Assembly (NCBI GenBank): GCA_009777445.1
Contig: WRLV01000014.1
Coordinates: 1-36,187, forward strand
Direction of reading: 5' to 3'
Source of the DNA: Oscillospiraceae bacterium
Lineage (GTDB): Bacteria > Bacillota > Clostridia > Oscillospirales > Ruminococcaceae
Length of the DNA stretch: 36,187 nucleotides
Of the stretch, positions 5,350 to 35,617 are shown in pieces. The notes under the pieces were generated by a model, which ran no database searches, had not been told where the DNA came from, and worked only from the letters and a program-made list of their open reading frames with translations. Positions within the stretch are counted from its first letter, which is position 1, and each line of letters opens with the position of its first letter. The position numbers and the translations under genes are program-made.

Positions 5350-6600
5350 ATGAAAACTTTTCACACAGACATAGCTGTCATAGGGGGCGGTGCGGCAGGA
5401 CTTGCGGCCGCCATTTATGCGGCGCGAGAATCTAAATGCGGAATTACCGTGATTGAGAGAAACCCACGCCCGGGCAAAAAGCTAATCAGCACAGGAAACG
5501 GCAGATGTAACTTAGCACATTCGCCTGTTGACTTTAACGCCTTTTACGGCGAGCGGCAGTTAGCCCGAAGCGTTTTCGCAAGAACAACCCCCGAAGACGA
5601 GTTCTTCTCATCTTTGGGGGTTAAGTTAACCTGCGACAAAAACGGCAACGTATATCCATATTCAAACACCTCTTCTGCTGTGTTGGACGGGTTAAGATTA
5701 GAGGTTGCTAAGGCGGGCGTTAACATGCTCACCGAGTTTAAAGTCATTGACATTGTGCCGTTAATGGAGGGGTTTCGCATTTACCCCGATGACGACACTA
5801 AACCGATAATTTGCGCACGGCGGCTGATTTTAGCCCCCGGAGGAAAAGCCGCCCCCGATACAGGCAGTGACGGGCTTTGTTTCACGCTTATAAAAAAGCT
5901 GTCAATAGAAGTGAAAAAGTTAAGCCCTGCTCTTTGCCCCATAAAGACCACCAACACCGACACTCGTGCAATGAAAGGGCTTAGGATTAACGCTTGCTGC
6001 TCGGCAGTCTTAAACAACGGCAAGGTGTTGAGAAGCGAAACAGGCGAGTTGCAATTCGGCGAGGACAGGTTGAGCGGCATTTGCATTTTTAATTTAGCGA
6101 GTTTAGCATCAAGGCACGGCAGCAATTTAATCATATCGGTTGACTTAGCACCTGACATTCCACCTGATGAGCTTTTAAAATTTATAGTGCAAACTGCAAA
6201 AATAAGGGCAGATTTGCCTATTGAGGACTTGCTTTCAGGGCTTTTGCCGAAGCGGTGTGGGGTTACCATCACCAAACCCATTACCCGTCACCCGATGAAC
6301 GCAAAGATTAAAAACCTCACAACAGACGAACTCGAAAGCCTTGTTCTTGCGATAAAAGACTGGCGGTTTCCTGTGCGATACAGCGAGCCGTGGCTCAACG
6401 CACAGGTCACGGCAGGGGGCGTTCCCGCACATGAACTCACCGCCGAGCTTTGTTCAAAACGACACCCACACCTTTATTTTGCAGGCGAGGTAATCGACAT
6501 AAACGGCGACTGCGGCGGCTATAACCTAATGTGGTGCTGGCGAAGCGGAGAGTTAGCAGGGAAGAGCGCGGCGGGGAGTTTGATGTCAGTTGACAATTGA
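5350..6600 (+). CDS. BaiN/HI0933 (YhiN)-family FAD-dependent oxidoreductase
   Basis: A 416-residue flavoprotein of the HI0933/BaiN family. Seen: the dinucleotide-binding motif VIGGGAAGLAAAIYAAR (residues 9-25) followed by an acidic residue in VIERN, the family motif GKKLISTGNGRCNL (about 43-56), and the C-terminal FAD-contact region AGEVIDINGDCGGYNLMW (about 380-397). The physiological substrate of most members is unknown; BaiN was described as a bile-acid 3-dehydro-4-reductase candidate, so substrate must not be assumed. It sits 4 bases after lysC. The last residues (SVDN) and the stop codon are encoded by the heptamer repeat array at 6587-6614, so the original C-terminus has probably been replaced or extended by a few residues. 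Confidence 0.88.
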   Translation: MKTFHTDIAVIGGGAAGLAAAIYAARESKCGITVIERNPRPGKKLISTGNGRCNLAHSPVDFNAFYGERQLARSVFARTTPEDEFFSSLGVKLTCDKNGNVYPYSNTSSAVLDGLRLEVAKAGVNMLTEFKVIDIVPLMEGFRIYPDDDTKPIICARRLILAPGGKAAPDTGSDGLCFTLIKKLSIEVKKLSPALCPIKTTNTDTRAMKGLRINACCSAVLNNGKVLRSETGELQFGEDRLSGICIFNLASLASRHGSNLIISVDLAPDIPPDELLKFIVQTAKIRADLPIEDLLSGLLPKRCGVTITKPITRHPMNAKIKNLTTDELESLVLAIKDWRFPVRYSEPWLNAQVTAGGVPAHELTAELCSKRHPHLYFAGEVIDINGDCGGYNLMWCWRSGELAGKSAAGSLMSVDN

Positions 6601-6637
6601 CAGTTGAGAGTCGATAGTGATTGTAGGGGACGGGCTT
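6587..6637 (+). repeat. heptamer array plus degenerate GGGACGGGC module (copy 1)
   Basis: Heptamers CAGTTGA, CAATTGA, CAGTTGA, GAGTCGA fill 6587-6614; the second supplies the TGA stop of the upstream gene. At 6621-6637 follows TTGTAGGGGACGGGCTT, the left arm of the hairpin seen intact at 35580-35599. The right arm is missing but the trailing T-tract (6644-6650) remains, so this looks like a decayed terminator module. Confidence 0.8.
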
Positions 6638-6671
6638 CAAGAATTTTTTTATTCAAAACTTCAAAATACTA

Positions 6672-6700
6672 TTGCAATTTTAAAAACTATGTGCTATAAT
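6672..6700 (+). promoter_or_regulatory. secG promoter
   Basis: TTGCAA (6672-6677), 17-base spacer, TATAAT (6695-6700) with TGC just before (extended -10). Confidence 0.75.
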
Positions 6701-6735
6701 AAGTTTTGGATAAATAATTAGAACGAAATTTTAAA

Positions 6736-6754
6736 GCACACTTGTGCAGGAAGG
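6736..6754 (+). promoter_or_regulatory. leader mini-hairpin and ribosome binding site of secG
   Basis: GCACA-CT-TGTGC (6736-6747) forms a 5-bp hairpin directly before the Shine-Dalgarno GGAAGGA (6749-6754 core). Comparable leaders precede the hub gene (415-436) and the DUF1015 gene (16029-16048). The spacing to ATG 6764 is 9 bases. Confidence 0.55.
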
Positions 6755-6763
6755 ACATGCAAA

Positions 6764-7204
6764 ATGGAAATGCAGTTAATTGAGATTATCGGAGCGGTAT
6801 TACTTATAGTAAGTTGTATCTCTATTATACTCTTAGTAGTATCGCAGGACTCGACGAAAGGGTTATCGCAGTCGCTGACAGGTTCAAGCTCTGACAGTTA
6901 TTATCAGAAAAACTCAGGGAGAACTAAAGATGCGTTGTTGAAAAAGGCGACCCGGACAGCCATTATTATTCTTTTTGTGGTGACTTTAACGGTGAATGTG
7001 TTCGCGCTTTTAAACCGAAATAACCAAAGCAACCCACGGGATGCCTTGCTTGGGGCAGAAGACGTTGATTTCGGCGGCGATTTTCAGATGAATGTAGTCG
7101 ATGAAGAGGGCAATGAGATTGTAGGCAATGTGGTTGGGGGCGATGATGGTGAGCTTATAATCGAGCCTTCCGATGGCGATGGCAATGGCGAAGAAGTAGA
7201 ATAA
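6764..7204 (+). CDS. secG: protein translocase subunit SecG, with acidic tail
   Basis: Small membrane subunit of the SecYEG channel that assists SecA-driven export. The 146-residue product has two predicted membrane helices (about 6-27 and 65-83) joined by a Gly/Ser-rich polar loop typical of SecG (SLTGSSSDSYYQKN). Usual SecG proteins are about 75-80 residues; here an acidic, Gly/Asp/Glu-rich extension of about 60 residues (84-146) follows the second helix and ends in GNGEEVE. The role of that tail is unknown. Placement just before rnr is the common Gram-positive arrangement and supports the call. A hairpin after the stop could attenuate readthrough into rnr. Confidence 0.9.
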   Translation: MEMQLIEIIGAVLLIVSCISIILLVVSQDSTKGLSQSLTGSSSDSYYQKNSGRTKDALLKKATRTAIIILFVVTLTVNVFALLNRNNQSNPRDALLGAEDVDFGGDFQMNVVDEEGNEIVGNVVGGDDGELIIEPSDGDGNGEEVE

Positions 7205-7211
7205 AAACTTT

Positions 7212-7238
7212 TTGAGCCGCGAACAAGCGGCTCAATTT
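7212..7238 (+). terminator. hairpin between secG and rnr
   Basis: Perfect 9-bp stem TTGAGCCGC (7212-7220) / GCGGCTCAA (7227-7235), 6-base loop, then a short TTT. A weak terminator or attenuator, since rnr begins only 36 bases downstream. Confidence 0.6.
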
Positions 7239-7270
7239 GCTATGCTATAGAATTCTGCAGAGGAAATTTG

Positions 7271-11630: not shown

Positions 11631-12320
11631 ATGAGTCCATTAAAACTATATCATGCTTCAGCCGCTGTGGTTAAAAAACCGCAATGGGATTATGCGCGCG
11701 AGATTTTAAAAGACGATTTCGCCGAATTGAGAGATTTCGGCTTGGGTTTCTACACCTGCGCAGATAAAGAATATCCTCTTAAAATAGCCGCATTTCATAA
11801 TGAGACGGTCTATTTGAATGAATATGAAATAGACATTGCAAATTTAAATGTTGTCGAACTTAAACTTGACATTGAATGGCTTATCAGCATAGCATTTCAC
11901 AGGCGTGAATTTGCAGGAAGAAAGAAATACACAGAGATTAAAGAAAGATGTAGGGCATGGTTACGGGGGTTTGATATAGTAATCGGCACAATTTCAAACG
12001 ACAGGACATTCTCTGCAATAGAAGGTTTTTTAGACAACACACTGTCCGACACAACTTCTATATCAATGGTTGATGCGTCGAAATACGGCGTTCAGTATAC
12101 ATTGAAATCCGACAAAGCTTGTGAGAGATTAAAGTGGTTGAATTCATATAAGTTAACCGCTGACGAAGTTTCAAAATACAAAAAAATTTTTGAAAACGAA
12201 AAACGTGAATATTCGGGGAGAGCGGAAGAAATAAAAATAGCTCTGTATAAAAAACACGAGGGTGACTTATTGGCAACGATTATCGGGGAGGGCTTGTTTA
12301 ATGGAAGAGTACGGTTTTAA
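11631..12320 (+). CDS. DUF3990 family protein (ADP-ribosyltransferase-like)
   Basis: 229 residues resembling DUF3990. Seen: LYHAS at residues 5-9 (family YHGS), DFGLGFYTC near residue 38 (family DFGxGFY), GTISNDRTF in the middle (family GxxADDR) and YGVQYTLKSDKACERLKW toward the end (family QxxFxTxxAL). DUF3990 is thought to share the ADP-ribosyltransferase fold, with the His of the YHGS-like motif at the NAD site; enzymatic activity here is not shown. GAAAGGCGG (11616-11622) precedes ATG 11631. The gene is 4 bases after the HipA-fold kinase and overlaps the next gene by 20 bases, with that gene's GGGGAGG inside its coding sequence. DUF3990 proteins often pair with small DUF3791-type partners, suggesting a toxin-antitoxin-like unit. 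Confidence 0.7.
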   Translation: MSPLKLYHASAAVVKKPQWDYAREILKDDFAELRDFGLGFYTCADKEYPLKIAAFHNETVYLNEYEIDIANLNVVELKLDIEWLISIAFHRREFAGRKKYTEIKERCRAWLRGFDIVIGTISNDRTFSAIEGFLDNTLSDTTSISMVDASKYGVQYTLKSDKACERLKWLNSYKLTADEVSKYKKIFENEKREYSGRAEEIKIALYKKHEGDLLATIIGEGLFNGRVRF

Positions 12321-12741
12321 TAAAGACTTAGACTCATATGAGTTGGCGTGGGCTAACAATCAAGGCATTGTGTTTGAGGAATGTCAAGACTTAGGGGCAG
12401 ATGCCGTGGATTATATTACTAAGTTTATGCTAAGCGAAGTTGCCGAAAACATAGATAAAAGAGTCTATCCTTACAGCTGCGCCGGAGCGGCACCCATAAA
12501 AAGAACCGCTTATCAAAAAAACCAACCCATTAAACCTTATAGCGATAATAATCACATCAACGAGGATACATTATATTGGATAGGCTATATATACAGATAT
12601 TGGCAAAATCTGCTCGGAACATCAAGCAAGGAAATTATCAAAATTGTTCCGGTTGAAAAAGCAATGGCGTTTTACCCGGCTTGCCACTCAATGGGAAACA
12701 AAGAAGCCATTGCAAGAATGATTAATATGGTTGACAGTTGA
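12301..12741 (+). CDS. small unknown partner of the DUF3990 protein
   Basis: 146 residues, not firmly recognised. The C-terminal 50 residues (YWIGYIYRYW, then SSKEIIKI, then an MNxx-like AMAFYPACHSMG stretch) are helical and look like the small genes often found next to DUF3990, loosely DUF3791-like; this is a tentative resemblance. The start is ATG 12301 with GGGGAGG at 12285-12291; it overlaps the DUF3990 gene by 20 bases, a tight coupling expected of an antitoxin or immunity partner. The last three residues (VDS) and the stop are encoded by the heptamer repeat at 12728-12741, which also supplies the -35 box of the next promoter. It contains two Cys (Cys27-like ECQ and SCAG) but no metal-site pattern. 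Confidence 0.6.
   Translation: MEEYGFNKDLDSYELAWANNQGIVFEECQDLGADAVDYITKFMLSEVAENIDKRVYPYSCAGAAPIKRTAYQKNQPIKPYSDNNHINEDTLYWIGYIYRYWQNLLGTSSKEIIKIVPVEKAMAFYPACHSMGNKEAIARMINMVDS
12728..12741 (+). repeat. short heptamer array (copy 2)
   Basis: Two units, TGGTTGA and CAGTTGA, overlap the end of the upstream gene; TGA 12739-12741 is its stop. No hairpin module follows. Confidence 0.6.
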
Positions 12742-13157: not shown

Positions 13158-13215
13158 CAATTGACAATGTACAATTGACAATTGACAATTATGGAGTCGC
13201 CTTTGGCGACGGATT
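13158..13215 (+). repeat. heptamer array plus GTCGCC hairpin (copy 3)
   Basis: Units CAATTGA, CAATGTA, CAATTGA, CAATTGA, CAATTAT (13158-13192), then hairpin GTCGCC (13196-13201), loop TTT, GGCGAC (13205-13210), then GGATTTT. It lies between yajC and secA in gene orientation. Confidence 0.9.
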
Positions 13216-16061: not shown

Positions 16062-17441
16062 ATGGCTGAAATAAAAAGTTTTAAAGGGCTGAGATATACC
16101 GAGAAGGCGGGGGCTATAGCGCAACTGTGTTGCCCCCCTTATGACATTATCGACAAAGCCACGCGAGAGAGATTTTTGCAACACAATCCCCATAACATCA
16201 TAAGGTTAGAGCTTCCTAAGCCGTTGTCCGACACCACGCCCGACGACCAACCTTATGCTTTGGCGGCTCAAATTCTGAAAGATTGGCTCTCAAAGGGGCT
16301 TGTTAAGGCGGCTCTTGAGGAATGTCTTTACGTTTATGAGATGGAGTTTCAGCTCGCGGGAAGCCCCGAATTTCACAGTGTCAAGGGGTTTATTTCACTC
16401 GTAAAGCTTGAAGAGTTTTCAAAGGGCATAATCCTGCCCCATGAGGAAACGTTAAGCAAAGCGAAAACCGACCGCTTAAAACTCATGGAGGCGACCGGCT
16501 GTAATTTCAGCCAAATTTACTCGCTTTATATGGACGAAAACGCCCAAATTCTTGAGCTTATAACTGCGCAAAGTTTAAACGCGCCCGACAGCGAGTTCAC
16601 TGACGGGGACAATGTTACCCATCGACTTTGGTGCGTGTCGGACTCGAAATTTATCGAAAAAGTAACCACCCTCATGGCGGACAAGAAAATCTATATTGCC
16701 GATGGTCATCATCGTTATGAGACCGCGCTGAATTATCGAAACAATTTGGCAAATCGCGGCGTGTCTATGGGAGCGTCTGAGTACGTTCCCATGATGTTGG
16801 TTAATATTGAAAACCCCGGATTAGTGGTTTTCCCCACTCATAGAATTGTGCGTGGGTTAGCAAACTTTGATTATGCCGCGTGTCTTGAAAAGTGCGCCGA
16901 GTTTTTTGATGTCACGCAAGACATTCCACCCAAAATGGCTTTGGCGGCTTTAGAGCAAGCCTATCGCGATGAGAAAAAAGCGTTCTTAATTTACACCAAA
17001 GATAGCTATACTTTGATTGTGCTGAAAGAGGGCGTGAGTGTTGGAGATTCGCCGTCTACGGAAGCTCAAGATAAATCAGCGAGTGAGCTGTTGCAAATAA
17101 AGCAAACTTGTTCACGGTTTGCCACCGGCGGCTCGCCGGATTCGCCGGTTGAGAGATTAGATGTGAGTGTTCTTCACACTTTGGTTCTTGACAGAATTTT
17201 AGGAATTGACAAAGAGAACATGACGAATCAGACTAATCTCGTTTACACAAAAACCATTGCCGAAGCGTTAGCGGCAGTGGACTCGGCAAATGCAAATTGC
17301 GCCTTTTTGCTGAACCCCACGCGCATAAGCGAAATTCGCGATGTCGCCGCCAACGGCGAGAAAATGCCGCAAAAGTCTACATACTTTTATCCTAAACTTA
17401 CCACGGGGTTGGTTTTTAGACAGTTGACAGTGGACAGTTGA
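16062..17441 (+). CDS. DUF1015 family protein
   Basis: 459 residues of the DUF1015 (SerR-like/putative HTH-kinase era annotation) family, common in Clostridia and of uncertain biochemistry. Family text seen: KSFKGLRYTEK at the start, CCPPYDII near residue 27, GIILPHEETLSKAKTDRLKLM in the first third, YIADGHHRYETALNYR near residue 220, LVNIENPGLVVFPTHRIV, and LDVSVLHTLVLDRILGI toward the end. Some members are placed near D-amino-acid or serine metabolism genes, but no function is assumed. The segment at residues 330-366 between two conserved blocks is an insert containing the coding palindrome (TGGSPDSPV). The C-terminus (LTVDS) and stop come from the heptamer repeat. ATG 16062 lies 13 bases after AGAAAGGG, a somewhat long spacing. 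It is convergent with the giant secreted-protein gene. Confidence 0.8.
   Translation: MAEIKSFKGLRYTEKAGAIAQLCCPPYDIIDKATRERFLQHNPHNIIRLELPKPLSDTTPDDQPYALAAQILKDWLSKGLVKAALEECLYVYEMEFQLAGSPEFHSVKGFISLVKLEEFSKGIILPHEETLSKAKTDRLKLMEATGCNFSQIYSLYMDENAQILELITAQSLNAPDSEFTDGDNVTHRLWCVSDSKFIEKVTTLMADKKIYIADGHHRYETALNYRNNLANRGVSMGASEYVPMMLVNIENPGLVVFPTHRIVRGLANFDYAACLEKCAEFFDVTQDIPPKMALAALEQAYRDEKKAFLIYTKDSYTLIVLKEGVSVGDSPSTEAQDKSASELLQIKQTCSRFATGGSPDSPVERLDVSVLHTLVLDRILGIDKENMTNQTNLVYTKTIAEALAAVDSANANCAFLLNPTRISEIRDVAANGEKMPQKSTYFYPKLTTGLVFRQLTVDS
17120..17139 (+). repeat. in-frame palindromic repeat (copy 3, in the DUF1015 gene)
   Basis: The same 20-mer as at 7465-7484, holding the hairpin CCGGCG-GCT-CGCCGG, in the same reading frame as in the first rnr copy (ATGGSP). 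It lies in an insert between conserved blocks. Confidence 0.85.
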
Positions 17442-17481
17442 GAGTTGACAGTTACGGTGTCGCCTTACGGCGACGGATTTG
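17421..17481 (+). repeat. heptamer array plus GTCGCC hairpin (copy 4)
   Basis: Units CAGTTGA, CAGTGGA, CAGTTGA, GAGTTGA, CAGTTAC (17421-17455); hairpin GTCGCC (17459-17464), TTAC, GGCGAC (17469-17474); then GGATTTG. TGA 17439-17441 is the stop of the DUF1015 gene. Confidence 0.9.
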
Positions 17482-17492
17482 AATTTATAACG

Positions 17493-17535
17493 AAATACAC
17501 CGCCCAACGGTTTTTGTTGGGCGGTGTTTAATTTT
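17493..17535 (+). terminator. bidirectional-type terminator between convergent genes
   Basis: 12-bp perfect stem ACACCGCCCAAC (17497-17508) / GTTGGGCGGTGT (17516-17527), 7-base loop, then TTAATTTT. On the minus strand the stem is followed by ATTTCG, a poorer tract. It lies between two inverted repeat elements. Confidence 0.85.
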
Positions 17536-17539
17536 AAAT

Positions 17540-17596
17540 CCCGTCCGCGCAAGCGGACTCAATCACTGTCAACTCTCAACTGTCCACTGTCAACTC
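17540..17596 (-). repeat. heptamer array plus GTCCGC hairpin, inverted (copy 5)
   Basis: On the minus strand: GAGTTGA, CAGTGGA, CAGTTGA, GAGTTGA (17596 down to 17569), then a spacer and hairpin GTCCGC (17558-17553), TTGC, GCGGAC (17548-17543), then GGGATTT. Its TGA at 17592-17590 is the stop of the minus-strand gene, so the element follows that gene's direction. Confidence 0.88.
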
Positions 17597-26077: not shown

Positions 26078-26150
26078 CTGCCTGTAGCACAATGGATAAT
26101 GCGTCAGACTCCGACTCTGAAGATTTCCGGTTCGAGTCCGGACAGGCAGG
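26078..26150 (+). tRNA. tRNA-Arg, anticodon CCG
   Basis: A complete 73-base cloverleaf: acceptor CTGCCTG / CAGGCAG, a D arm GCA/TGC, anticodon stem TCAGA/TCTGA with loop CTCCGAC giving anticodon CCG (reads CGG), T stem TCCGG/CCGGA with loop TTCGAGT, and discriminator G. CCA is not encoded. A heptamer array begins 6 bases downstream. No integrase or repeated 3' end that would mark an attachment site is present. Confidence 0.95.
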
Positions 26151-26156: not shown

Positions 26157-26226
26157 CAATTGACAATGTACAATTGACAATTGAAAATTGAAAATTGACA
26201 GTTAACAATGTACAATTGACAATTAA
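26157..26226 (+). repeat. ten-unit heptamer array (copy 6)
   Basis: Ten consecutive 7-base units, mostly CAATTGA with variants CAATGTA, AAATTGA and CAGTTAA. This is the longest pure array here, with no hairpin module. It lies between tRNA-Arg and the hybrid kinase and ends 2-3 bases before that gene's Shine-Dalgarno. Confidence 0.92.
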
Positions 26227-26245: not shown

Positions 26246-29200
26246 ATGTTTGGAGCCAAAAAGTATAAAGTTCCTAAGGCACTCACCCCGACAATCCTTA
26301 AAATGAAATTAAAAGAGCAACAACGACTTTTAAGCGAATTTAAGGCGATTGAATATGATATAACTAACTATAAATTAGCGAGTGAAGCTATGAAAATCGC
26401 GCTTTGGCGAATGGACGTGGTTGTTGATGACCCGGTTAATTTAGATAATCGGTTTGTTTGGTCGCCTGAATTTCGCGCTATGCTCGGCTTTTCGGATAAG
26501 AATGACTTTCCTGATGTGCTTCGCAGTTGGTTTGAGTGTCTGCACCCCGATGACAAAGAGGTGTCGCTTAAGGCTTTCGCCTCTCACATAAACGACCGCA
26601 CGGGAAATACGCCGTATAATATTGAATATCGCCTGAGAAATAAAAACGGCGAATATCGCCATTATGACGGTTTTGGAACGACTTTGCGCGACAGCGAAGG
26701 CATACCGATTAGGGTGTCGGGGGCGATAAGAGACGTTACCGAAAAAAAGCAAGCGCAAATAGCACTTGAACACCGTGAGAAATTGTTGCTGGCGTTAAAC
26801 GAGGCCGCCGTTGCTTTTCTTTCTCAAAGTAAAAAAAGCTTTACCGACACAATGATGGGCAGTGTCTCTCCGATTGCCGATGTCACGGGGCTTCACCGCT
26901 TGTCTATATGGCGTAATATCGAAAAACCAAGCGGCTTATACGCACGCCAACTCTACAGGTGGGACAGAGAATCCGGTGGAACCACCACCCCACAACCACT
27001 GCTTCAGGGAGACGTTCCCTTTTCAAAACTCGCACCGCGTTGGCCCGAAATATTTAAGAACGGCGATTCTATAAACAGCCCGACAAAACTACTTCAAGAA
27101 GCTGAGATGTTAAAGTCTTTCGGCGTTGTTTCAGCTTATATAACACCATTATTTATCAACGGGTTTCTTTGGGGGTTCGGGCTTTTTGAAGACCGCAAGA
27201 ACGAACGATTTTTCGATGAAAACGTTTCAGAAATATTGCGTTCGGCGGGCTATTTGTTCGCTAACGCCATTATCCGCGATGAAATGGAGAGAGAAGTCGC
27301 CAAAGCTAACGCACGCTCAAAAATCCTTCTTGACAAAACCCCGTTGTGCTGCCAATTGTGGGACAACAATTTCAAAAAAATAGACTGCAACGAAGCGGCA
27401 GTAAAGCTGTTCGGGTTTAAAGACAAACAAGATTATTTAGACAGATACCACGAGCTTTATACTAAAACTCAGCCCGATGGTCAAAAAACCGAAGAAAAAG
27501 CAATTAAAAGCGTAAAAAAAGCCCTTGATGAGGGCATTCATGTGCTTGATTGGACATATAAAATGCTTGACGGTTCACTCATGCCCACTGAAATTACGCT
27601 GATTAGGGTTGAGTATGAAGATGGTTTCGGCGTGGCAGGTTACACTCGCGATTTGCGCGAACACGAGAAAATGATGAAAGAAATCAATCATCGTGACCGC
27701 CTTCTGCGCGCGGTAAACAGCGTCTCAAACGTGTTGCTGACAGCCGAAAACAACGCGCCGTTTAAAGACGTGTTGCTTGAAGCAATGGGAATAATCGGGC
27801 AAGGCGTAAATGCCGACTGCGTTGAAATCTGGCAAAACACCTTCAAAGGAGGAGAGCTTCACGCTATCATGCGCAGCTATTGGGTGCGTGAAAGAGATAA
27901 TCGTCTTATTACCGACATTACCGTAAAAAAATTCGCCTATAACTCAACACCCGGCTGGGAGGAGAGAATGTCGCGCGGTGAGTGCATAAACGGCCCTGTT
28001 GAACATCTTGCTGACCGAGACCGCGACTTTCTAAGCAAATTCGAGATTAAATCAGCACTAATCATTCCAATTTTCATAGAAAATAATTTTTGGGGAATGT
28101 GTTGCATTGATGATTATACAAAGCAGCGTGTTTTTTCCGAAGAAGAGGTAAACATTCTGCGCTCATGCGGCCTGCTTTTTGCTAACGCCCTGCTCCGCAA
28201 CGAAATGGTAGGGGAGATTGAACAGCAGTCACTCAAACTCTCAATTCAAAAAAACACACTCCAAACTATGATTAATTCAATGCCAGACTTTGTGTTCGGC
28301 AAAAATTTAAAATCAGAATACACATTGCTCAATCTTTCTGCCGCTAAATATCTAAACGTCAACGTATATGACGTTATAGGTAAAGATGATATAGACGGGT
28401 TGCATTTTCCCCCTGAAATTGCAAAAACAATGATTGCGCAAGACAAAACCATTTTTGACAGCAACGATAAGTTTGTAGATGAGCATTGGATACCCGCCTA
28501 TGACGGCTCTTTGAGATATTTTGAAACAACCAAAGCCCCGATTATACAAGACGGTGTAACAATCGGGCTTGTGGGTGTTTCGCGCGATATAACCGAAAAA
28601 ACAAAGATGAAAGAAGATTTGCAAAAAGCACTTGAAACGGCAACCACCGCCGCTAAGGCGAAGGGGGACTTTTTGTCTGCCATGAGCCATGAAATGAGAA
28701 CGCCCATGAACGCAATAATAGGCATGACGGCAATAGGAAAAAGGGCAACTTCTACAGCAGAAAAAAATGACGCGCTCAAGAAAATAAGCGATGCATCTTC
28801 TCACCTTCTCGGGGTAATCAATGATGTTCTTGATATGGCTAAAATTGAGGCAAATAAATTAGAGTTGTCTTCAATCGAGTTCAGTTTTGAAAGAATTCTT
28901 AATAAAGTGATTACAATAGCTAATTTCCGCATAGACGAAAAACGGCAGCACTTCTCTGTCGATATAGACAAACACATTCCCTCATTTCTTTTTGGAGATG
29001 ACCAGCGTTTGGCTCAAGTCATCACAAACATTTTGTCAAACGCGGTAAAGTTCACACCCGAAGGCGGCGAAATCAGTCTCAAGGCTGTTTTGGAAGATGA
29101 AACCGATTCGATTTGCACGTTGAGGATTGAAATTGCCGACAATGGAATAGGAATCGCTCCCGCGCAACAAAAGAAGCTTTTTGATATGTTTGAGCAAGCC

Positions 29201-30190
29201 GAAAGCGGAATCAGCCGCAAATACGGCGGAACAGGCTTAGGGCTTGTAATATCAAAACGCATTGTCGAGTTAATGGGCGGTGAAATTTGGGTCGAGTCTG
29301 AACTTAACAAGGGCGCGCGGTTTATCTTCACGCTCAAGGCACGCCGCGGAAGCAAAAGCCCTGCATCTCTCCTCGCACCGACAATAAATCAAAATAACGT
29401 ACGCGTTTTGGTGGTGGATGATACTATTGAAGTTCACGCTCAATTTTTAGAATTGTTTAAAAAGATGAATATAAAATGCGACGTTGCTTCAGATGGGCAC
29501 GAGGCTTGCCGCATTATAGAAGAGAACGAAAGCTATGACATTTATTTCATAGATTGGGGTATGCCCGGCATGAACGGCATTGAGTTGACAGAAAAAATCA
29601 GACAACTCCGCGATGGAAAACAAGCGGTTGTAATCATGATAACAGCTATGGACTGGGATAAAATTAAAGGCGATGCGTGCAAAGCGGGGGTGAACAAATA
29701 TCTGCTCAAACCACTTATGGCATCAACCATTATTGACTCGATAAACGAATGTTTAGGCATCGAAAAAATCGCAAAAAATCGCCATAAAGAGGAAGAAGAA
29801 GGTGAGTTTTCAGGCAAAACACTTTTGCTCGCCGAGGATATTGAAATTAACCGCGAAATATTAACGGCGTTGCTCAAGGACACGGGCATTAAAATTGATT
29901 ACGCCGAAAACGGTGAAGAGGCATTGGGTATAGTAGAAAAAGAACCCGATAAATATGACGTTGTGTTCATGGACGTGCAAATGCCCAAAATGGACGGTCT
30001 CGAAGCAACACGCCGTATTCGCGCACTGCCAACCGAACGCACGCGTGAATTGCCAATCATAGCAATGACAGCAAACGTCTTTAAAGACGACATCGAAGCA
30101 TGTCTCGCAGCAGGAATGAACGACCATATCGGCAAACCCCTTGATATAGATAAAGTAATAGAAACGCTTCGGAAGTATTTATATAGTTGA
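26246..30190 (+). CDS. soluble hybrid histidine kinase with PAS/GAF sensors and two receivers
   Basis: A 1314-residue cytosolic sensor kinase with no membrane span or signal peptide. Order: PAS (about 40-165, ending in a VTEKK linker), GAF (about 175-345), PAS (about 355-470), GAF (about 480-660), PAS (about 665-790, ending DITEKTK), HisKA with phospho-acceptor His815 in MSHEMRTPMNAIIGM, HATPase_c (NILSNAVKFTP, ADNGIGI, GGTGLGLVIS), receiver 1 with Asp1103 (YFIDWGMPG) and receiver 2 with Asp1243 (FMDVQMPKMDG). Both receivers keep the acidic pocket, Thr/Ser and Lys, unlike the degenerate receivers at 9457-10700. No Hpt domain and no adjacent response regulator are seen, so its output partner lies elsewhere. 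AAAGGAGA precedes ATG 26246. The stop TGA is the first unit of the next repeat. Confidence 0.93.
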   Translation: MFGAKKYKVPKALTPTILKMKLKEQQRLLSEFKAIEYDITNYKLASEAMKIALWRMDVVVDDPVNLDNRFVWSPEFRAMLGFSDKNDFPDVLRSWFECLHPDDKEVSLKAFASHINDRTGNTPYNIEYRLRNKNGEYRHYDGFGTTLRDSEGIPIRVSGAIRDVTEKKQAQIALEHREKLLLALNEAAVAFLSQSKKSFTDTMMGSVSPIADVTGLHRLSIWRNIEKPSGLYARQLYRWDRESGGTTTPQPLLQGDVPFSKLAPRWPEIFKNGDSINSPTKLLQEAEMLKSFGVVSAYITPLFINGFLWGFGLFEDRKNERFFDENVSEILRSAGYLFANAIIRDEMEREVAKANARSKILLDKTPLCCQLWDNNFKKIDCNEAAVKLFGFKDKQDYLDRYHELYTKTQPDGQKTEEKAIKSVKKALDEGIHVLDWTYKMLDGSLMPTEITLIRVEYEDGFGVAGYTRDLREHEKMMKEINHRDRLLRAVNSVSNVLLTAENNAPFKDVLLEAMGIIGQGVNADCVEIWQNTFKGGELHAIMRSYWVRERDNRLITDITVKKFAYNSTPGWEERMSRGECINGPVEHLADRDRDFLSKFEIKSALIIPIFIENNFWGMCCIDDYTKQRVFSEEEVNILRSCGLLFANALLRNEMVGEIEQQSLKLSIQKNTLQTMINSMPDFVFGKNLKSEYTLLNLSAAKYLNVNVYDVIGKDDIDGLHFPPEIAKTMIAQDKTIFDSNDKFVDEHWIPAYDGSLRYFETTKAPIIQDGVTIGLVGVSRDITEKTKMKEDLQKALETATTAAKAKGDFLSAMSHEMRTPMNAIIGMTAIGKRATSTAEKNDALKKISDASSHLLGVINDVLDMAKIEANKLELSSIEFSFERILNKVITIANFRIDEKRQHFSVDIDKHIPSFLFGDDQRLAQVITNILSNAVKFTPEGGEISLKAVLEDETDSICTLRIEIADNGIGIAPAQQKKLFDMFEQAESGISRKYGGTGLGLVISKRIVELMGGEIWVESELNKGARFIFTLKARRGSKSPASLLAPTINQNNVRVLVVDDTIEVHAQFLELFKKMNIKCDVASDGHEACRIIEENESYDIYFIDWGMPGMNGIELTEKIRQLRDGKQAVVIMITAMDWDKIKGDACKAGVNKYLLKPLMASTIIDSINECLGIEKIAKNRHKEEEEGEFSGKTLLLAEDIEINREILTALLKDTGIKIDYAENGEEALGIVEKEPDKYDVVFMDVQMPKMDGLEATRRIRALPTERTRELPIIAMTANVFKDDIEACLAAGMNDHIGKPLDIDKVIETLRKYLYS

Positions 30191-30267
30191 CAGTTGACAA
30201 TTGAGAGTTGACAGTTGTGGTGTCCGCTTGCGCGGACGACTTGTAGGGGACGGGCTTGCCCGTACCG
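30184..30267 (+). repeat. full composite repeat: heptamers, GTCCGC hairpin, GGGACGGGC hairpin (copy 7)
   Basis: The only copy with all three modules: heptamers TAGTTGA, CAGTTGA, CAATTGA, GAGTTGA, CAGTTGT (30184-30218); hairpin GTCCGC (30222-30227), TTGC, GCGGAC (30232-30237); then TTGTAGGGGACGGGC, TT, GCCCGTACC (to 30266). TGA 30188-30190 is the stop of the hybrid kinase gene. Confidence 0.92.
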
Positions 30268-30338: not shown

Positions 30339-31166
30339 ATGACTGAACTCGAATATAAATTCACTTATGACCTGCTGTTCAAGATGGTCTTCACAAAGCA
30401 TGTTAAATTGCTAAAAAGTCTCGTAGCCACGCTACTTGGGCTTGCTCTTGACAGCATTGAGCTGTTTCAAATTCGCAACCCCGAAATTCCACCTGAAACA
30501 TGGGGCGACAAGTTTTGCCGTCTTGATATTAACATGATAGTAAACGGTCTGCGGGTTGACCTTGAAATTCAAATCAATGACGAGGGCGACTTTCCGGAAC
30601 GTTCGCTTTATTACTGGGCTCGTGAGTATTCTACAGCTTTACAAGAAGGTGAGACCTACTCGGATTTACCGAAGACGATTATTATCAGCATAGTAAATTT
30701 CACGATGTTTAAAGATTATTCCGGCTTTCATTCAGAGTTTCACGCACTTGAAGCCACTCGTCATACACAGTTAACAGATAAATTTTGTCTGCATTATTTC
30801 GAGTTGCCTAAACTGCCATTGGAAGCTTTATCTAAAACCGATAGGCTCAGATTATGGCTTGCATTGTTCAAAGCAAAAACTGAAGAAGATTTGAAACAAA
30901 TTGAAGAGTTGGGAGTTGATGAAATGCAAGAAGCGATTCAAGCTTATAAAACAGTTGCCGCCACTTCCGAGTTCAAGGAAGTCGCACGTCTTCGTGAACG
31001 AGCGAGATTTAATGAAGCATCGGCTTTACGGAATGCAGAGAGGAAGGGAAGGCGTGAGAGGAATATTGAAATTGCACGAAATTTATTAGGCACAGGCTTA
31101 CCGCTCGACCAAATTGCGAAGGCAACAGGATTATCCAAAAAAGAAGTCGAAGGCTTGCGAGGGTAA
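30339..31166 (+). CDS. Rpn-family recombination-promoting nuclease (PD-(D/E)XK, Transposase_31-like)
   Basis: A 275-residue protein of the Rpn/YhgA-like family, predicted PD-(D/E)XK endonucleases linked to RecA-independent recombination in E. coli. Seen: TYDLLFKMVF at the N-terminus, the catalytic core CRLDINMIVNGLRVDLEIQI (Asp, then Glu-x-Gln), YYWAREYSTALQEGETYSDL, and the C-terminal IARNLLGTGLPLDQIAKATGLSKKEVEGL typical of the family. ATG 30339 fits GAGGTG (30323-30328) better than the in-frame TTG at 30330. It directly follows the only full composite repeat and has its own strong promoter. A second family member, cut off by the window end, lies next to another repeat. It looks intact. Confidence 0.88.
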   Translation: MTELEYKFTYDLLFKMVFTKHVKLLKSLVATLLGLALDSIELFQIRNPEIPPETWGDKFCRLDINMIVNGLRVDLEIQINDEGDFPERSLYYWAREYSTALQEGETYSDLPKTIIISIVNFTMFKDYSGFHSEFHALEATRHTQLTDKFCLHYFELPKLPLEALSKTDRLRLWLALFKAKTEEDLKQIEELGVDEMQEAIQAYKTVAATSEFKEVARLRERARFNEASALRNAERKGRRERNIEIARNLLGTGLPLDQIAKATGLSKKEVEGLRG

Positions 31167-31301: not shown

Positions 31302-31535
31302 ATGAAAAACAAAAACTTTTTCTTAGGGGTGTTGGGGATTATTGCGGTTATCAGCGGTGCGATAATAACGCTTTTATTGCTTAAAGACAAATTTAGAAGG
31401 CGCGGAGAATTTGACTTTGATGAGTTTGATGAAATATTTGAAGGTGATGACGAAGAATTTGAGCATTTCTTTGACACTGACGATGAATTTATGGATGGGC
31501 TTGAAGGAGATAATGAGCCTATAATTGAAGGCTGA
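31302..31535 (+). CDS. small single-span membrane protein with acidic tail
   Basis: 77 residues: a short basic start (MKNKN), one membrane helix (about 7-27), a basic KDKFRRR stop-transfer stretch, and then a strongly acidic Asp/Glu/Phe-rich tail (about 35-77). Topology should place the tail in the cytosol by the positive-inside rule. It has its own good promoter and an AAAGG before ATG 31302. I do not recognise the family; such tails resemble small membrane-anchored acidic proteins seen in many Clostridia. The stop is followed within 3 bases by a heptamer array. Confidence 0.65.
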   Translation: MKNKNFFLGVLGIIAVISGAIITLLLLKDKFRRRGEFDFDEFDEIFEGDDEEFEHFFDTDDEFMDGLEGDNEPIIEG

Positions 31536-31537
31536 TA

Positions 31538-31599
31538 CAGTTGACAGTGGACAGTTGAGAGTTGACAGTTATTGTGTCCGCTTACGCGGACGGATTTGA
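31538..31599 (+). repeat. heptamer array plus GTCCGC hairpin (copy 8)
   Basis: Units CAGTTGA, CAGTGGA, CAGTTGA, GAGTTGA, CAGTTAT (31538-31572); hairpin GTCCGC (31576-31581), TTAC, GCGGAC (31586-31591); then GGATTTGA. The first 33 bases match copy 4 although the hairpin stem differs. Confidence 0.92.
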
Positions 31600-31611
31600 A
31601 ATGATAATATG

Positions 31612-31697
31612 TTTACGGGAGCTGTTTTATGACGGCTGAGAGGGTGTCCGATAAGACACCGACCGCACCTGATTTGGATAATGCCAACGTAGGGAGA
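31612..31697 (+). promoter_or_regulatory. TPP riboswitch (THI element)
   Basis: Contains the hallmark pyrimidine-sensing CTGAGAGGGTG (31636-31646), a P3 hairpin GGTGTC/GACACC, and the pyrophosphate-sensing block from ACCTGAT (31667) through GGATAATGCCA to GTAGGGA (31690-31696). It precedes thiC, as expected. The promoter must lie close upstream, inside or just after repeat copy 8; only a weak GATAAT (31603-31608) is visible. Confidence 0.95.
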
Positions 31698-31710
31698 AAT
31701 TTTGTGCTTT

Positions 31711-31738
31711 AAGCGCGCTCTCAACGGCGCGCTTTTTT
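31711..31738 (+). terminator. intrinsic terminator, expression platform of the TPP riboswitch
   Basis: AAGCGCGC (31711-31718), 8-base loop, GCGCGCTT (31727-31734), continuing into a T6 tract (31733-31738). It lies 14 bases after the aptamer and 32 bases before thiC, so TPP binding should favour termination. Confidence 0.9.
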
Positions 31739-31769
31739 GTTGAATTATATATTTTTTAGGAGGAATGTC

Positions 31770-33068
31770 ATGAGCTATAAAACACAAATGCAGGCGGCGA
31801 AAAACGGGGTTATAACAGAGCAACTCAAAATTGTCGCGTACAAAGAGGGAATATCTGAAGAGAGCTTAAGAGCGCGCGTGGCGGCAGGGGCTGTTGCCAT
31901 TCCCGCCAACATCAACCATAAGTCTTTAAGCCCCGAAGGGGTGGGAGAGGGGTTGCGCACAAAAATAAACGTCAACCTCGGCGTGTCGGGCGACTGCGCC
32001 GATTATTCAAAAGAGTTCGACAAAGTTAAACTGTCAATAGAACTGAAAGCTGAAGCGATTATGGACTTGAGCAATTACGGCAAAACTTTTGAGTTTAGAA
32101 AACAATTGATTGAACACTCGCCCGCCATGCTCGGAACGGTTCCCATTTATGATGCCATAGGCTATCTCGAAAAAGAGCTTGTGAACATAAGCGCGCAAGA
32201 CTTTTTAGATGTCGTGGAACTCCATGCGCGCCAGGGGGTTGACTTCATGACAATACATGCGGGAATCAACCGAAAAACCATATCTGTGTTCAAAGAAAGC
32301 GGCAGATTGATGAACATTGTCTCGCGGGGCGGCTCTCTGCTTTTCGCGTGGATGGAACTCACCGGCAGAGAGAACCCGTTCTATGAATATTACGATGCTG
32401 TAATGGATATCTTCAGGAAATATGATGTCACAATAAGCTTAGGAGATGCGATGAGACCGGGCGCGATTGCCGACAGCACAGACAGCTCACAAATAACCGA
32501 GCTTATAGAATTGGGGCTGCTCACTAAAAGAGCGTGGGCGCGTGACGTTCAGGTTATGGTTGAAGGCCCCGGGCATATGGCAATCAATGAAATTAAGGCG
32601 AACATGGTTCTGCAAAAGCGGTTGTGTCACAATGCGCCGTTTTACATATTGGGGCCGCTCGTCACCGACATTGCCCCCGGATACGACCATATTACATCGG
32701 CAATAGGCGGAGCAATCGCGGCGGCGGCAGGCGCGGATTTTCTTTGTTATGTCACACCGGCAGAGCATTTGCGGCTACCGGATTTGCAGGACGTTAAAGA
32801 GGGGATTATAGCAGCTAAAATTGCGGCTCACGCGGCTGATATTGCTAAGGGAATACCAAGTGCGCGCGTTATTGACAATAAAATGTCAAAGGCGCGCAGA
32901 GAGATTGACTGGGAAGAGATGTATAAACACAGCATAGACCCCGAAAAGGCAAGACGATATCGCGAGAGCGTGCCGGTTGAGAACGAGAGAAGCTGTTCAA
33001 TGTGCGGCAAAATGTGCGCTGTGAGAACAACCAACGCCATTCTTGAAGGAAAGGAATTAGACTTATGA
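31770..33068 (+). CDS. thiC: phosphomethylpyrimidine synthase ThiC
   Basis: Radical-SAM enzyme that rearranges 5-aminoimidazole ribotide to HMP phosphate, the pyrimidine half of thiamine. The 432-residue product shows [11 protein letters not shown] near residue 155, SRGGS near 188, [16 protein letters not shown] near 225-240, [11 protein letters not shown] and [13 protein letters not shown]. The C-terminal [4Fe-4S] motif reads CSMCGKMC, i.e. C-x2-C-x3-C, as in the shorter clostridial/archaeal ThiC type rather than the C-x2-C-x4-C of E. coli. ATG 31770 follows a strong AGGAGG (31758-31763). It is controlled by the upstream TPP riboswitch and overlaps thiW by 4 bases (ATGA). Confidence 0.96.
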
Positions 33069-33637: not shown

Positions 33638-34283
33638 CTTGACTCTTTATTTAGTAACCGACCGCCCCAGCACAAACCTTACTTTTGAACAACTCTTAAC
33701 AAAGGTGGAACAGGCATGCAAAGGCGGTGTCGGCTTAGTGCAATTAAGGGAAAAAGAATGCACGACACAAGAATATATTAACATGGCGAAAAGAATGATG
33801 GAAGTTACCCACAAATATAATGTCCCCTTAGTGGTAGACGACCGCGTTGACGTGGCACTTATCGCCGAAACAGACGGCGTTCACGTGGGGACAGATGACA
33901 TGAGTGTGGCAGATGCAAGGCGGCTTTTGGGCGAAAGTAAAATAGTGGGTTCAACAGCAAAAACCATTGAACGCGCACAAAGCTCAGAGAAAGAGGGTGC
34001 GGACTATCTCGGGACAGGAGCGATTTTTGAGCCGACAGTCAAAGTAAAAACCCACAGAACAAGTATAGAAAAATTAGGTGAAATCGCAAGAAGCGTAAAA
34101 ATCCCAACAGTCGCCATAAGCGGCATAAACAGAGGAAACATAGAGCAATTAGCCAACTCCCCCATAGCAGGGATTGCAGTAATAGCCGCAATCCTCGATG
34201 CCCACGACAGCGAACTTGAAACGGTTTTGTTGAAAAAAGAGGTAGTTAGGCAGTTGAGGGGCTTCAAGTCTGCGCCCCTTTAA
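33615..34283 (+). CDS. thiE: thiamine phosphate synthase ThiE
   Basis: Couples HMP pyrophosphate with hydroxyethylthiazole phosphate to thiamine phosphate. The 222-residue TIM-barrel protein has LYLVTDR at the first strand, GVGLVQLREKE (pyrophosphate/HMP contact), VPLVVDDRVDVAL, TDGVHVGTDD, IVGSTAKT, GADYLGTGAIFEPTVK and VAISGINRGNI, in the usual order. ATG 33615 lies inside the end of thiW with AAAGGGGA at 33596-33603. The kinases ThiM and ThiD needed to prepare both substrates are not in this window. The 3' end overlaps the convergent XRE gene by 20 bases. Confidence 0.95.
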   Translation: MNYRENLDLTLYLVTDRPSTNLTFEQLLTKVEQACKGGVGLVQLREKECTTQEYINMAKRMMEVTHKYNVPLVVDDRVDVALIAETDGVHVGTDDMSVADARRLLGESKIVGSTAKTIERAQSSEKEGADYLGTGAIFEPTVKVKTHRTSIEKLGEIARSVKIPTVAISGINRGNIEQLANSPIAGIAVIAAILDAHDSELETVLLKKEVVRQLRGFKSAPL

Positions 34284-34905
34284 TTAAACTCAAAAGTGCC
34301 GTTCCTTGTTTTTGATATTCTTGTTCGATTGTGTGGGTTGAAATTTCGATGTTGCTTTTGTTTTCGGTGAACGAATCGAGTGCCGCCGCCTCACTTATGT
34401 CGGAATGTGCTGATGCGAAGCGTAAAGCCATATCAAGGCTTTGAGCGAACATTTCCGATGTGTGAGCGGGATTTGCGGCGTGCAACAGACGAAAAACCCG
34501 ATAAACAGCAAGATTTAAAATCCTAATAATGCTCGCCGTCAGAGTTTGGTTTTTAATTCGTGCCGCAAGTGAGAAGACAATATCAAGCCCACTTATTATA
34601 ATTCGCTTTGACATTGCCGTTGAAAACGAGCCTAATTCGCGGTCTGCTTTTACATCTTTTGGAACTAAATCCTCTTTCGCGATAACGCTCCCGTCACGCG
34701 CGGCTGTTCGCCCTAATAAATAATCAGCAGAAACGTTATAATAATCAGCCGCACGCACTAAAAAAGCTAACCCACATTCCCTCTTACCCTTTTCATAATG
34801 CGAAAGCAACGCCTGGTTGAGCTTTAAATCCTCAGCCGCTTGCTTTTGGCTGATTTTTTTCTCCTTGCGCAAAAGTGTCAAAACTCGCGGAAAATCCATA
34901 TTCAT
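34264..34905 (-). CDS. XRE-family transcriptional regulator
   Basis: 213 residues. An N-terminal Cro/C1-type helix-turn-helix (about 4-60) shows ISQKQAAEDLKLNQALLSHYEKGKRECGL, read in two parts: the ISQKQAAEDL helix and the NQALLSHYEKGKR recognition helix, followed by ADYYNVSADYLLGR. The C-terminal 140 residues are helical and unrecognised. ATG at 34905 is chosen for GGAGG on the minus strand (34918-34914), 8 bases upstream. A candidate minus-strand promoter has TATAAT at 34943-34938 and a weak TTTACT at 34966-34961. It is convergent with thiE (20-base 3' overlap) and divergent from queH, 79 bases away. Its target is unknown; thiamine control is already explained by the riboswitch. Confidence 0.85.
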   Translation of the reverse strand: MNMDFPRVLTLLRKEKKISQKQAAEDLKLNQALLSHYEKGKRECGLAFLVRAADYYNVSADYLLGRTAARDGSVIAKEDLVPKDVKADRELGSFSTAMSKRIIISGLDIVFSLAARIKNQTLTASIIRILNLAVYRVFRLLHAANPAHTSEMFAQSLDMALRFASAHSDISEAAALDSFTENKSNIEISTHTIEQEYQKQGTALLSLIKGAQT

Positions 34906-34984
34906 CTTTTCAACCTCCAAGAAAGAACTTCCAGTATATTATACACCATATATTTCAAAAAGTAAAGAAAAAAGAGGTAATTTT

Positions 34985-35563
34985 GTGGTTTTTAATGAAA
35001 CGCTAAAGAAAATAGCAAACTATGTCGAAAAGCCTAAGCTTTTGTTGCACAGTTGTTGCGCGCCTTGCAGTAGCTATGTGATTAGCGTGTTGACTGAAAT
35101 TTGTGATGTTTGTGTTTTTTATTTTAATCCGAACATTTCGCCTGTTTTGGAATATGAAAAGCGTTATAGCGAACAAATTCGGCTGTTAAACATTTTGAAT
35201 ATAAAGCACATTGAAACGCGTTATGAGCCGCGTGAATTTCACAACGCCGTTTGCGGATTAGAAAGCGAACCCGAGGGCGCGAGACGTTGCGACGTGTGCT
35301 TCAAGCTAAGGCTTTCTGAAACCGCAACCGTTGCAAAAGAAAACGGGTTCGACTTTTTCGGGACAACGCTGACAGTAAGCCCCCATAAAAACGCCGAAAA
35401 AATAAACGCAATCATGAAGCAAATAGGCGAACACAAAAAAATAAACCCCCTTTCAGCAGATTTCAAGAAGAAAGACGGTTATAAAAAATCAATAGAACTG
35501 TCAAAAAAACACGCACTCTATCGGCAGAATTATTGTGGATGCAGGATGGCAGTTGACAGTTGA
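34985..35563 (+). CDS. queH: epoxyqueuosine reductase QueH
   Basis: Reduces epoxyqueuosine to queuosine in tRNA, the non-homologous replacement of QueG (family formerly DUF208). The 192-residue protein has LLHSCCAPCSSY with Cys24, Cys25 and Cys28, FYFNPNI, the ETRYEPREFHNAV segment, RRCDVCFKLRL with a Cys-x2-Cys pair, TTLTVSPHKNAEKIN and a C-terminal YCGC. The Cys set fits the iron-sulfur and metal centres known for the family. The GTG at 34985 is chosen because GAGG (34974-34977) lies 7 bases upstream and the N-terminus then has usual length; a longer in-frame reading back to 34817 would run antisense through the XRE gene. The final MAVDS and stop come from the heptamer repeat. Confidence 0.93.
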   Translation: MVFNETLKKIANYVEKPKLLLHSCCAPCSSYVISVLTEICDVCVFYFNPNISPVLEYEKRYSEQIRLLNILNIKHIETRYEPREFHNAVCGLESEPEGARRCDVCFKLRLSETATVAKENGFDFFGTTLTVSPHKNAEKINAIMKQIGEHKKINPLSADFKKKDGYKKSIELSKKHALYRQNYCGCRMAVDS

Positions 35564-35617
35564 CAGTTGACAATTGTAGGGGACGGGCTTGCCCGTCCCG
35601 ATTTTTTTGCCCGTCCC
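35550..35617 (+). repeat. heptamer array plus GGGACGGGC hairpin (copy 9)
   Basis: Units CAGTTGA three times, then CAATTGT (35550-35577), directly followed by AGGGGACGGGC and its hairpin partner. TGA 35561-35563 is the stop of queH. A second GCCCGTCCC arm is present at 35609-35617. Confidence 0.92.
35580..35608 (+). terminator. strong intrinsic terminator after queH
   Basis: GGGACGGGC (35580-35588), TT loop, GCCCGTCCC (35591-35599), then GATTTTTTT. The stem is 9 bp, all Watson-Crick, with a T7 tract. This shows that the repeat's second hairpin module can be a functional terminator. Confidence 0.92.

What the first reader, a model, noticed from the sequence alone, without database searches (positions are those of the whole stretch)
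6587..35617. Dispersed heptamer arrays act as all-frame stop cassettes at gene 3' ends
Nine arrays of a 7-base unit (consensus CARTTGA) begin at 6587, 12728, 13158, 17421, 17596 (inverted), 26157, 30184, 31538 and 35550. Each lies just downstream of a gene and points the way that gene is read, including the inverted copy after the only long minus-strand gene. As 7 is not a multiple of 3 and each unit holds TGA, any three units give a stop in every frame; the opposite strand carries none. Six genes use an array TGA as their stop. This looks like an element selected or targeted to gene ends.
Basis: seen in the sequence. Interest (0 to 1): 0.78.

Follow-up and report, generated by a model that had tools for sequence, protein, structure and literature searches.

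The report
Heptamer-ended repeat elements at gene ends
A Clostridia-type bacterium carries a large family of short non-coding repeat elements whose ends are arrays of a 7-base unit and which sit right where genes stop; the stop signals in the arrays probably let the elements live there unharmed rather than being what they are for.

Summary
The arrays are real, far beyond chance and genome-wide. In a 404-kb sample, 49 of 77 arrays begin within -21..+8 nt of the end of a same-strand gene (simple null 8.6%), and unpaired arrays point the gene's way 47 to 3. A second species of the genus repeats this (22 to 1). But the array is one part of a larger element: it is usually followed by a perfect hairpin of changing stem, and in complete copies by a mirror-image hairpin and array. 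In two sister species the arrays are built from mixed heptamers, only 20 of 104 and 18 of 100 stop all frames, and unpaired arrays no longer favour 3' ends. Arrays also abut tRNA genes, and in one relative 5 of 31 lie inside genes; two sense ones examined have lost the in-frame TGA. A published stop-free heptamer in Xanthomonas has the same outward-pointing geometry. Best reading: a non-autonomous dispersed element, MITE- or REP-like in behaviour, whose all-frame stops make insertion in the last codons harmless. The enzyme that moves it and the cause of its gene-end preference are unknown. New variant of a known kind.

The parts
6587..6607 (+). array of 3 exact units; its second unit gives the TGA stop of the gene 5350-6600
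12728..12741 (+). marginal array (one exact unit, one with 2 mismatches); TGA 12739-12741 ends the gene 12301-12741
13158..13192 (+). array (CAATTGACAATGTA type) 4 nt after the yajC stop; TGACGAA precedes it
13196..13210 (+). hairpin A (GTCGCC-TTT-GGCGAC) behind the array
17421..17448 (+). left array of a full mirror-image element between convergent genes; stop of the gene 16062-17441
17459..17474 (+). hairpin A of that element
17497..17527 (.). intrinsic-terminator-like hairpin at the centre of that element, palindromic on both strands
17543..17558 (-). hairpin B of that element
17569..17596 (-). right array of that element; stop of the minus-strand gene 17590-23091
26157..26226 (+). array starting 7 nt after the last base of the tRNA-Arg gene (26078-26150); no A, B or C hairpin found behind it
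30184..30218 (+). array; its first unit gives the stop of the gene 26246-30190
30222..30237 (+). hairpin B behind it, followed by hairpin C at 30243-30263
31538..31565 (+). array 2 nt after the stop of the gene 31302-31535
31576..31591 (+). hairpin B behind it
35550..35577 (+). array; its second unit gives the stop of the queH-like gene ending at 35563
35576..35599 (+). hairpin C with a T-rich tail, terminator-like

Best explanation
A family of short (up to about 230 bp) non-coding dispersed elements. Shown: the ends are heptamer arrays that point inward to the element, hence outward from the neighbouring genes; next to the array there usually lies a perfect hairpin whose stem differs between copies; complete copies are mirror-image (array, hairpin, core with or without a terminator, hairpin, array); many copies in this genome are one-sided, with the array next to the upstream gene. 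Shown at a few loci: copies differ between sister species in presence, array length and core orientation. Inferred: they spread as passengers of an unknown enzyme in trans, like MITEs or REPs. Inferred: when a copy lands in the last codons of a gene, the first in-frame TGA of the array ends the protein with a short tail, whatever the frame, so the insertion is harmless, and the copy is then kept because losing it would read through; gain or loss of 7-bp units does not disturb termination. The stops thus act as a licence to sit at gene ends, not as the reason for the element. Why the left end falls so precisely at the gene end, even where free intergenic space exists, is not explained.
For: Strong hairpin within 34 nt 3' of the array: 61 of 78 (control 4 of 76) in G000, 21 of 27 (1 of 27) in G005, 21 of 33 (3 of 33) in G029, 15 of 23 (2 of 23) in named MAG loci, these last fetched with a pattern that already held the bases GGWGTC behind the array; 34 stems counted as different among 119, nested lengths and hairpin C included, 7 of them of exactly 6 bp. 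All 57 perfect A/B hairpin sites of the G000 sample have an array of 2 or more units on the proper side within 60 bp (6 of the 57 also one on the other side). 23 facing-array pairs of 100-229 bp, 16 in G000 and 7 in MAG loci; a few enclose other sequence, such as L012 2212. Closest relative G083: 0 exact triples; in 11 reciprocal-best genes with arrays the unaligned tails are at most 8 (G000) and 16 residues (G083), so arrays sit at true gene ends. G005/G029 (96% at secA): element in one only at L200 5879 and L190 7844, one-unit change at L190 13647, reverse-complemented core at L194 7279 (58 bp at 97%) and, less clearly, L166 3201 (84% reversed against 78% direct). Few all-frame stops in G005/G029. 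Stop-free GGGAATC has the same geometry (PMC4692102 passages).
Against: No target-site duplication seen: mean 2.0 nt against 1.6 for shuffled flanks. No mobilising enzyme found: Y1 transposase 0 hits in G000; other transposase families were not searched genome-wide. G065 arrays have no hairpins (1 of 31, control 2 of 30), so the array can exist alone. The gene-end preference exceeds the simple nulls, which plain passenger insertion does not explain. The presence/absence sites are not clean: the empty allele carries other bases there.
Confidence: 0.6

Rival explanations
1. The arrays are selected as all-frame translation stop cassettes at gene ends.
For: 49 of 77 arrays at the gene end, sense-oriented; stops in all three frames in 59 of 77, none on the reverse strand in 69 of 77; 26 genes stop on a TGA inside an array, at units 1, 2 and 3 about equally (10, 9, 7); sense arrays read inside two G065 genes have lost the in-frame TGA.
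Against: Only 20 of 104 and 18 of 100 arrays of the sister species stop all frames, against 49 of 78 in G000 by the same broad unit definition, and their unpaired arrays show no 3' bias (16:24 and 13:24). Arrays abut tRNA genes. The closest relative ends the orthologous genes without these arrays.
Confidence: 0.1
2. Gene-end-targeted insertion: the mobilising machinery prefers the 3' end of genes, perhaps through TGA on the coding strand.
For: The gene's stop is TGA in 20 of 22 genes with the array at 0..8 nt, against 102 of 316 array-free genes, p 5e-8; in G065 9 of 11 against 105 of 330. Tandem regions with at least 60 nt of other intergenic DNA: 19 of 25 arrays at the gene end against 4.8 expected, largest of 20,000 draws 14; G065 8 of 9 against 2.3, largest 8. 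Among arrays with TGA within 8 nt upstream, it is in frame in 27 of 44 against one third expected, p 1e-4.
Against: 16 of 27 in-array-stop cases have no TGA within 8 nt before the array. TGACGAA also stands at the 3' edge of a tRNA-Gly gene, its T being the last base of the predicted tRNA (L028), so at least GACGAA may belong to the element. The nulls do not model selection against disturbing the next gene's promoter. G005/G029 lack the 3' bias among unpaired arrays.
Confidence: 0.18
3. A domesticated 3'-UTR element: the hairpins stabilise mRNA ends or stop transcription.
For: Perfect stems are found while the stem sequence differs between copies; terminator-like hairpins at 17497-17527 and 35580-35599; stretch 17421-17545 folds at -47.8 kcal/mol, z -5.6.
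Against: Of 47 A/B hairpins behind arrays only 6 have a T-run (5 T in 8 nt) after the stem; two of the five shorter stretches folded had z above -2; G065 has arrays without hairpins; the closest relative lacks the arrays.
Confidence: 0.09
4. Plain short tandem repeats born by slippage at stop codons.
For: Array length differs by one unit between sister species (L190 13647 against L170); G065 arrays have no hairpin.
Against: The order of imperfect units is shared between loci (CAGTTGACAGTGGACAGTTGAGAGTTGA at 17421, 31538 and, with one base changed, 17569-17596), and in G000 hairpins come with them, so copies were dispersed, not born in place.
Confidence: 0.03

Closest known systems
GGGAATC heptamer repeats of Xanthomonas and GGGGA(T/C)T of Nostoc (PMC4692102; passages seen)
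   Same: Majority of 4 units in Xanthomonas; mainly intergenic; downstream of ORFs mostly 0-50 bp from the stop on the coding strand, including overlaps with the stop; [quoted passage not shown] The authors found no regulatory role
   Different: G-rich; the perfect GGGAATC unit gives no stop in any frame (read from the sequence); the passages seen describe no hairpins or mirror-image elements
TAACTGA repeats of Beggiatoaceae, Cyanobacteria and Bacteroidetes (PMC4679880; abstract, outline and passages seen)
   Same: 7-bp unit with stops in all three forward frames, overlapping the stop of upstream genes in 13 cases; patchy distribution; mostly 7-nt indels between two Cyanothece strains
   Different: Mostly just upstream of start codons, suggested to regulate translation; the passages seen describe no hairpin or mirror-image element
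Stop-rich bacterial miniature elements: RUP, 155-bp Correia, CIR (PMC2229807), MITEAba12 (PMC6382973) (passages seen)
   Same: Short, non-coding, dispersed, with stops in all six (RUP, CIR, MITEAba12) or 'all' (Correia) reading frames; a MITEAba12 copy ends a gene prematurely
   Different: MITEAba12 has terminal repeats and target duplications and is IS-derived; here the ends are heptamer arrays and neither duplication nor parent element was found
BrickBuilt MITE of Porphyromonas (PMC4596501; abstract passage and passages seen)
   Same: Tandem repeat inside an inverted-repeat element
   Different: 23-nt unit; 49-591 nt away from coding sequences; promoter activity
REP/BIME with RAYT (recalled)
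   Same: Dispersed intergenic hairpins, often as inverted pairs
   Different: No Y1 transposase in G000; arrays as ends

Membership tests
MITE | short non-coding element with terminal inverted repeats | tested here: met
   23 facing-array pairs, 100-229 bp, but many G000 copies are one-sided
MITE | target-site duplication | tested here: inconclusive
   mean 2.0 nt against 1.6 with shuffled flanks, largest shuffle 2.26; 15 of 23 have no immediate direct match; ragged array ends could hide one
MITE | ends match those of an autonomous transposon | not tested
   only Y1 transposase was searched as a family; genes between facing arrays were listed but not identified
MITE | presence or absence between close relatives | tested here: inconclusive
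   two loci differ (L200 5879 vs L180; L190 7844 vs L170) but the empty alleles are not clean
REP/BIME-RAYT | palindromes dispersed between genes | tested here: met
REP/BIME-RAYT | Y1 (RAYT-type) transposase in the genome | tested here: not met
   0 matches in G000, 91.6% complete; 0 in G065 and in G066, 61% complete
   59 of 77 in G000, 26 of 31 in G065; with the broader unit definition 49 of 78 in G000, 22 of 25 in G065, 20 of 104 in G005, 18 of 100 in G029
Heptamer repeats with outward-pointing gene-flanking geometry (as in Xanthomonas) | array abuts a gene and points away from it | tested here: met
   passages of PMC4692102

The most novel reading that the evidence does not exclude
The elements are inserted by a machinery that aims at the 3' ends of genes, placing its own all-frame stops over the native stop codon, so that the element replaces the end of a protein without harm: a safe-site strategy for a mobile element in a genome that is about 91% coding.
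Probability: 0.2. Interest if true: 0.75.

Novelty: new variant of a known kind. Interest (0 to 1): 0.45.

Why it matters
About one gene in eight of the sample (49 of 373; stretches were mostly chosen for holding arrays, so this is biased upward) ends on or beside such an array, and 26 take their stop codon from inside one. It links three things usually described apart: heptamer repeats, hairpin repeats and stop-rich miniature elements. It suggests that outward-pointing heptamers at gene borders, seen in Xanthomonas with a stop-free unit, follow a common rule. Stems that differ between copies but stay paired, and cores that look inverted between sister species, make the family a natural test of whether DNA or RNA hairpins drive its spread.

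Tried and rejected
Promoter reading (the -35 hexamer TTGACA recurs in the array): a -10-like hexamer (5 of 6) at 16-18 nt stands behind 1 of 71 arrays in G000, 4 of 30 in G065, 0 of 106 and 0 of 96 in G005 and G029; rejected as a general role. Y1/RAYT mobilisation: no such enzyme in G000, G065, G066. Known RNA family: at gathering threshold only a tRNA and a TPP riboswitch in the window. Spread by phages: the one 31-base array-plus-GGWGTC pattern scanned is absent from viral contigs; other forms were not scanned. Mid-gene truncation mistaken for gene ends by ORF calling: checked with 11 reciprocal-best genes and rejected for those. The pattern-read-backwards control and my reversed-sequence control are poor, because (CAGTTGA)n read backwards is the same array in another register; Markov controls were used instead. 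Published sequence: none of four 19-20-letter heptamer strings is in the held library; searches on heptanucleotides, STRR, MITE stops and Clostridia repeats (listings seen) gave the relatives named. The genus could not be named; the genus mate G029 has a contig of the same length (44,797) as CANRGJ010000015.1, labelled uncultured Ruminiclostridium sp., an inference by length.

Limits: genes were called by a script of my own, not a standard caller. Stretches of G000, G065, G005 and G029 were mostly chosen because they hold arrays; contig C1 of G000 was taken whole (20 arrays in 99 kb). Of three sense arrays called inside G065 genes two were translated as they stand; the third, in L122, lies 17 nt from its gene's end and was not translated. 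In one search, 26 of 33 G029 arrays and 19 of 27 G005 arrays had a partner locus in the other genome's held stretches; the partner lacked a 3-unit array in 17 and 9 of these, often because it carries other heptamers; 9 loci were aligned. The inverted core at L166 3201 is uncertain because the element is nearly palindromic.

Full report
Observation. The window is contig C14 of a 1.98-Mb, 91-contig genome (G000), 91.6% complete. Two-unit matches number 37 against 1.4 expected. I took 20 further stretches of the same genome; with the window this is 404,083 bp holding 78 arrays of at least 3 units, 77 after removing one double call; Markov controls gave none in ten tries.

Placement. With a simple gene caller (382 genes, 91% coding), 49 of 77 arrays start at most 8 nt behind the end of a same-strand upstream gene or inside its last codons; uniform placement over non-coding DNA plus the last 21 coding bases gives 8.6% (p 5e-33). 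Of 373 genes with a stop, 57 have a forward array between -25 and +60 of their end and 3 a reverse one. 26 genes stop on a TGA inside the array, at unit 1, 2 or 3 in 10, 9 and 7 cases, as expected for entry in any frame. Unpaired arrays point the upstream gene's way 47 to 3. In G065, another species of the genus, 31 arrays in 380 kb: of 22 forward arrays near a gene end 21 lie at -21..+5, 3 genes have a reverse one, and unpaired arrays are 22 to 1, with 5 of 31 inside genes. In tandem regions with 60 nt or more of other intergenic sequence the array still sits at the gene end in 19 of 25 (null 4.8) and, in G065, 8 of 9 (null 2.3). The null ignores selection on the next gene's promoter.

An artefact was possible, since a sense array ends a reading frame and would make a gene end anywhere. 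In the closest relative, G083 (SecA 84% identical; no exact triple array), 69 reciprocal-best proteins were found in the held stretches, 63 with complete 3' ends, 11 of them with an array in G000. In these 11 the unaligned tails are 0-8 residues in G000 and 0-16 in G083; for four genes (L016_7, L016_8, L025_1, L027_10) the native last residue is kept, with at most the two residues DS added. These arrays therefore sit at true gene ends.

Anatomy. The array is followed by a perfect hairpin within 34 nt in 61 of 78 cases (control 4 of 76); likewise in G005 (21 of 27), G029 (21 of 33) and MAG loci titled Clostridia, Oscillospiraceae, Ruminococcaceae and Ruminiclostridium (15 of 23), but not in G065 (1 of 31). 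The MAG loci were fetched with a pattern holding GGWGTC behind the array, so their count is not independent, and one of them is probably G029 itself. Stems include GTCGCC/GGCGAC, GTCCGC/GCGGAC, ATCGCC/GGCGAT, GTCCC/GGGAC, GTTGCC/GGCAAC and GTTTTTCGCC/GGCGAAAAAC; 34 were counted as different among 119, which includes nested lengths and hairpin C. In the sample all 57 A/B hairpin sites have an array on the proper side. Complete copies are mirror-image, 100-229 bp; the window copy at 17421-17596 lies between convergent genes and holds a terminator-like hairpin. The left edge often reads TGACGAA or TGACGG. The gene's stop is TGA in 20 of 22 genes whose array starts at 0..8, against 32% of ordinary stops; TGA stands within 8 nt before the array in 11 of 27 out-of-frame cases against a 15% background. 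At a tRNA-Gly gene TGACGAA begins on the last base of the predicted tRNA (L028). So TGA is part of the element, or a preferred target, or both.

Against a stop function. In the pair G005/G029 the arrays mix CAGTTGA with CAGTGTA, CAGTGCA and others; 20 of 104 and 18 of 100 stop all frames, against 49 of 78 in G000 by the same definition, and unpaired arrays are 16:24 and 13:24 for the 3' side. In the 404-kb G000 sample 2 of 4 tRNA genes have an array within 10 nt of their 3' end; in G065 and G005 an array also stands just before a tRNA and points away from it. In G065 five arrays are called inside four genes, two antisense and three sense; two of the sense ones were translated and carry TGG instead of TGA in the frame used, so the protein runs through a QLTVDSG-like repeat. 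The Xanthomonas heptamer GGGAATC, which has no stop in any frame, flanks genes in the same outward-pointing way (PMC4692102, passages). For a stop function speak the 59 of 77 arrays with stops in all frames and the 26 genes that use them.

Evolution. Exact triples occur in 21 of 71 genomes of the genus, own included: 227 in G000, then at most 65 (G066), and in 1 of 24 order mates. Between G005 and G029, 9 loci aligned in detail show a one-unit length change, two element differences by presence, replacement of unit types, and a core that is reverse-complemented between the arrays at L194 7279 and probably at L166 3201. No target duplication was seen and no Y1 transposase in G000.

Conclusion. 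It works like a MITE or REP: a dispersed, non-coding, mirror-image element. It is not filed as a member of either, since the Y1 enzyme of REPs was tested and not found, and the target duplication and parent element of MITEs were not shown. The all-frame stops most likely widen the set of harmless landing places to the last codons of genes. A true aim for gene ends remains possible and is the most novel reading.

Noticed in passing
window 31605-31713: TPP riboswitch directly behind the array and hairpin at 31538-31591, ahead of the gene 31770-33068.
   Followed up: no
window 30339-31166: PD-(D/E)XK nuclease family transposase-like protein (PF12784) between two arrays of the same orientation; whether such genes mobilise the elements was not tested.
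   Followed up: no
L110 3222-5651 and L117 7149-10454 (G065): Genes that read in frame through a sense heptamer array whose TGA in that frame is TGG, giving QLTVDSG-like peptide repeats.
   Followed up: partly
L194 7279 against L176; L166 3201 against L192: Element core reverse-complemented between sister species while the flanking arrays stay, suggesting inversion between the inverted arrays; clear at the first locus, uncertain at the second.
   Followed up: partly
G083 stretches L045-L104: The closest relative, without exact triple arrays, has a different abundant intergenic repeat (GCCGCAGATGTTTGAA, 31 copies in 607 kb).
   Followed up: no
window 2978-3068: 36-bp repeat, 2.5 copies, 98% matches, inside the gene 2838-3875.
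   Followed up: no
window 30243-30263 and 35576-35596: Hairpin C (GTAGGGGACGGGC..GCCCGT): of 14 sites found on the forward strands of the sample, 11 follow an array and 3 stand alone, so it may be a second family riding with the first.
   Followed up: no
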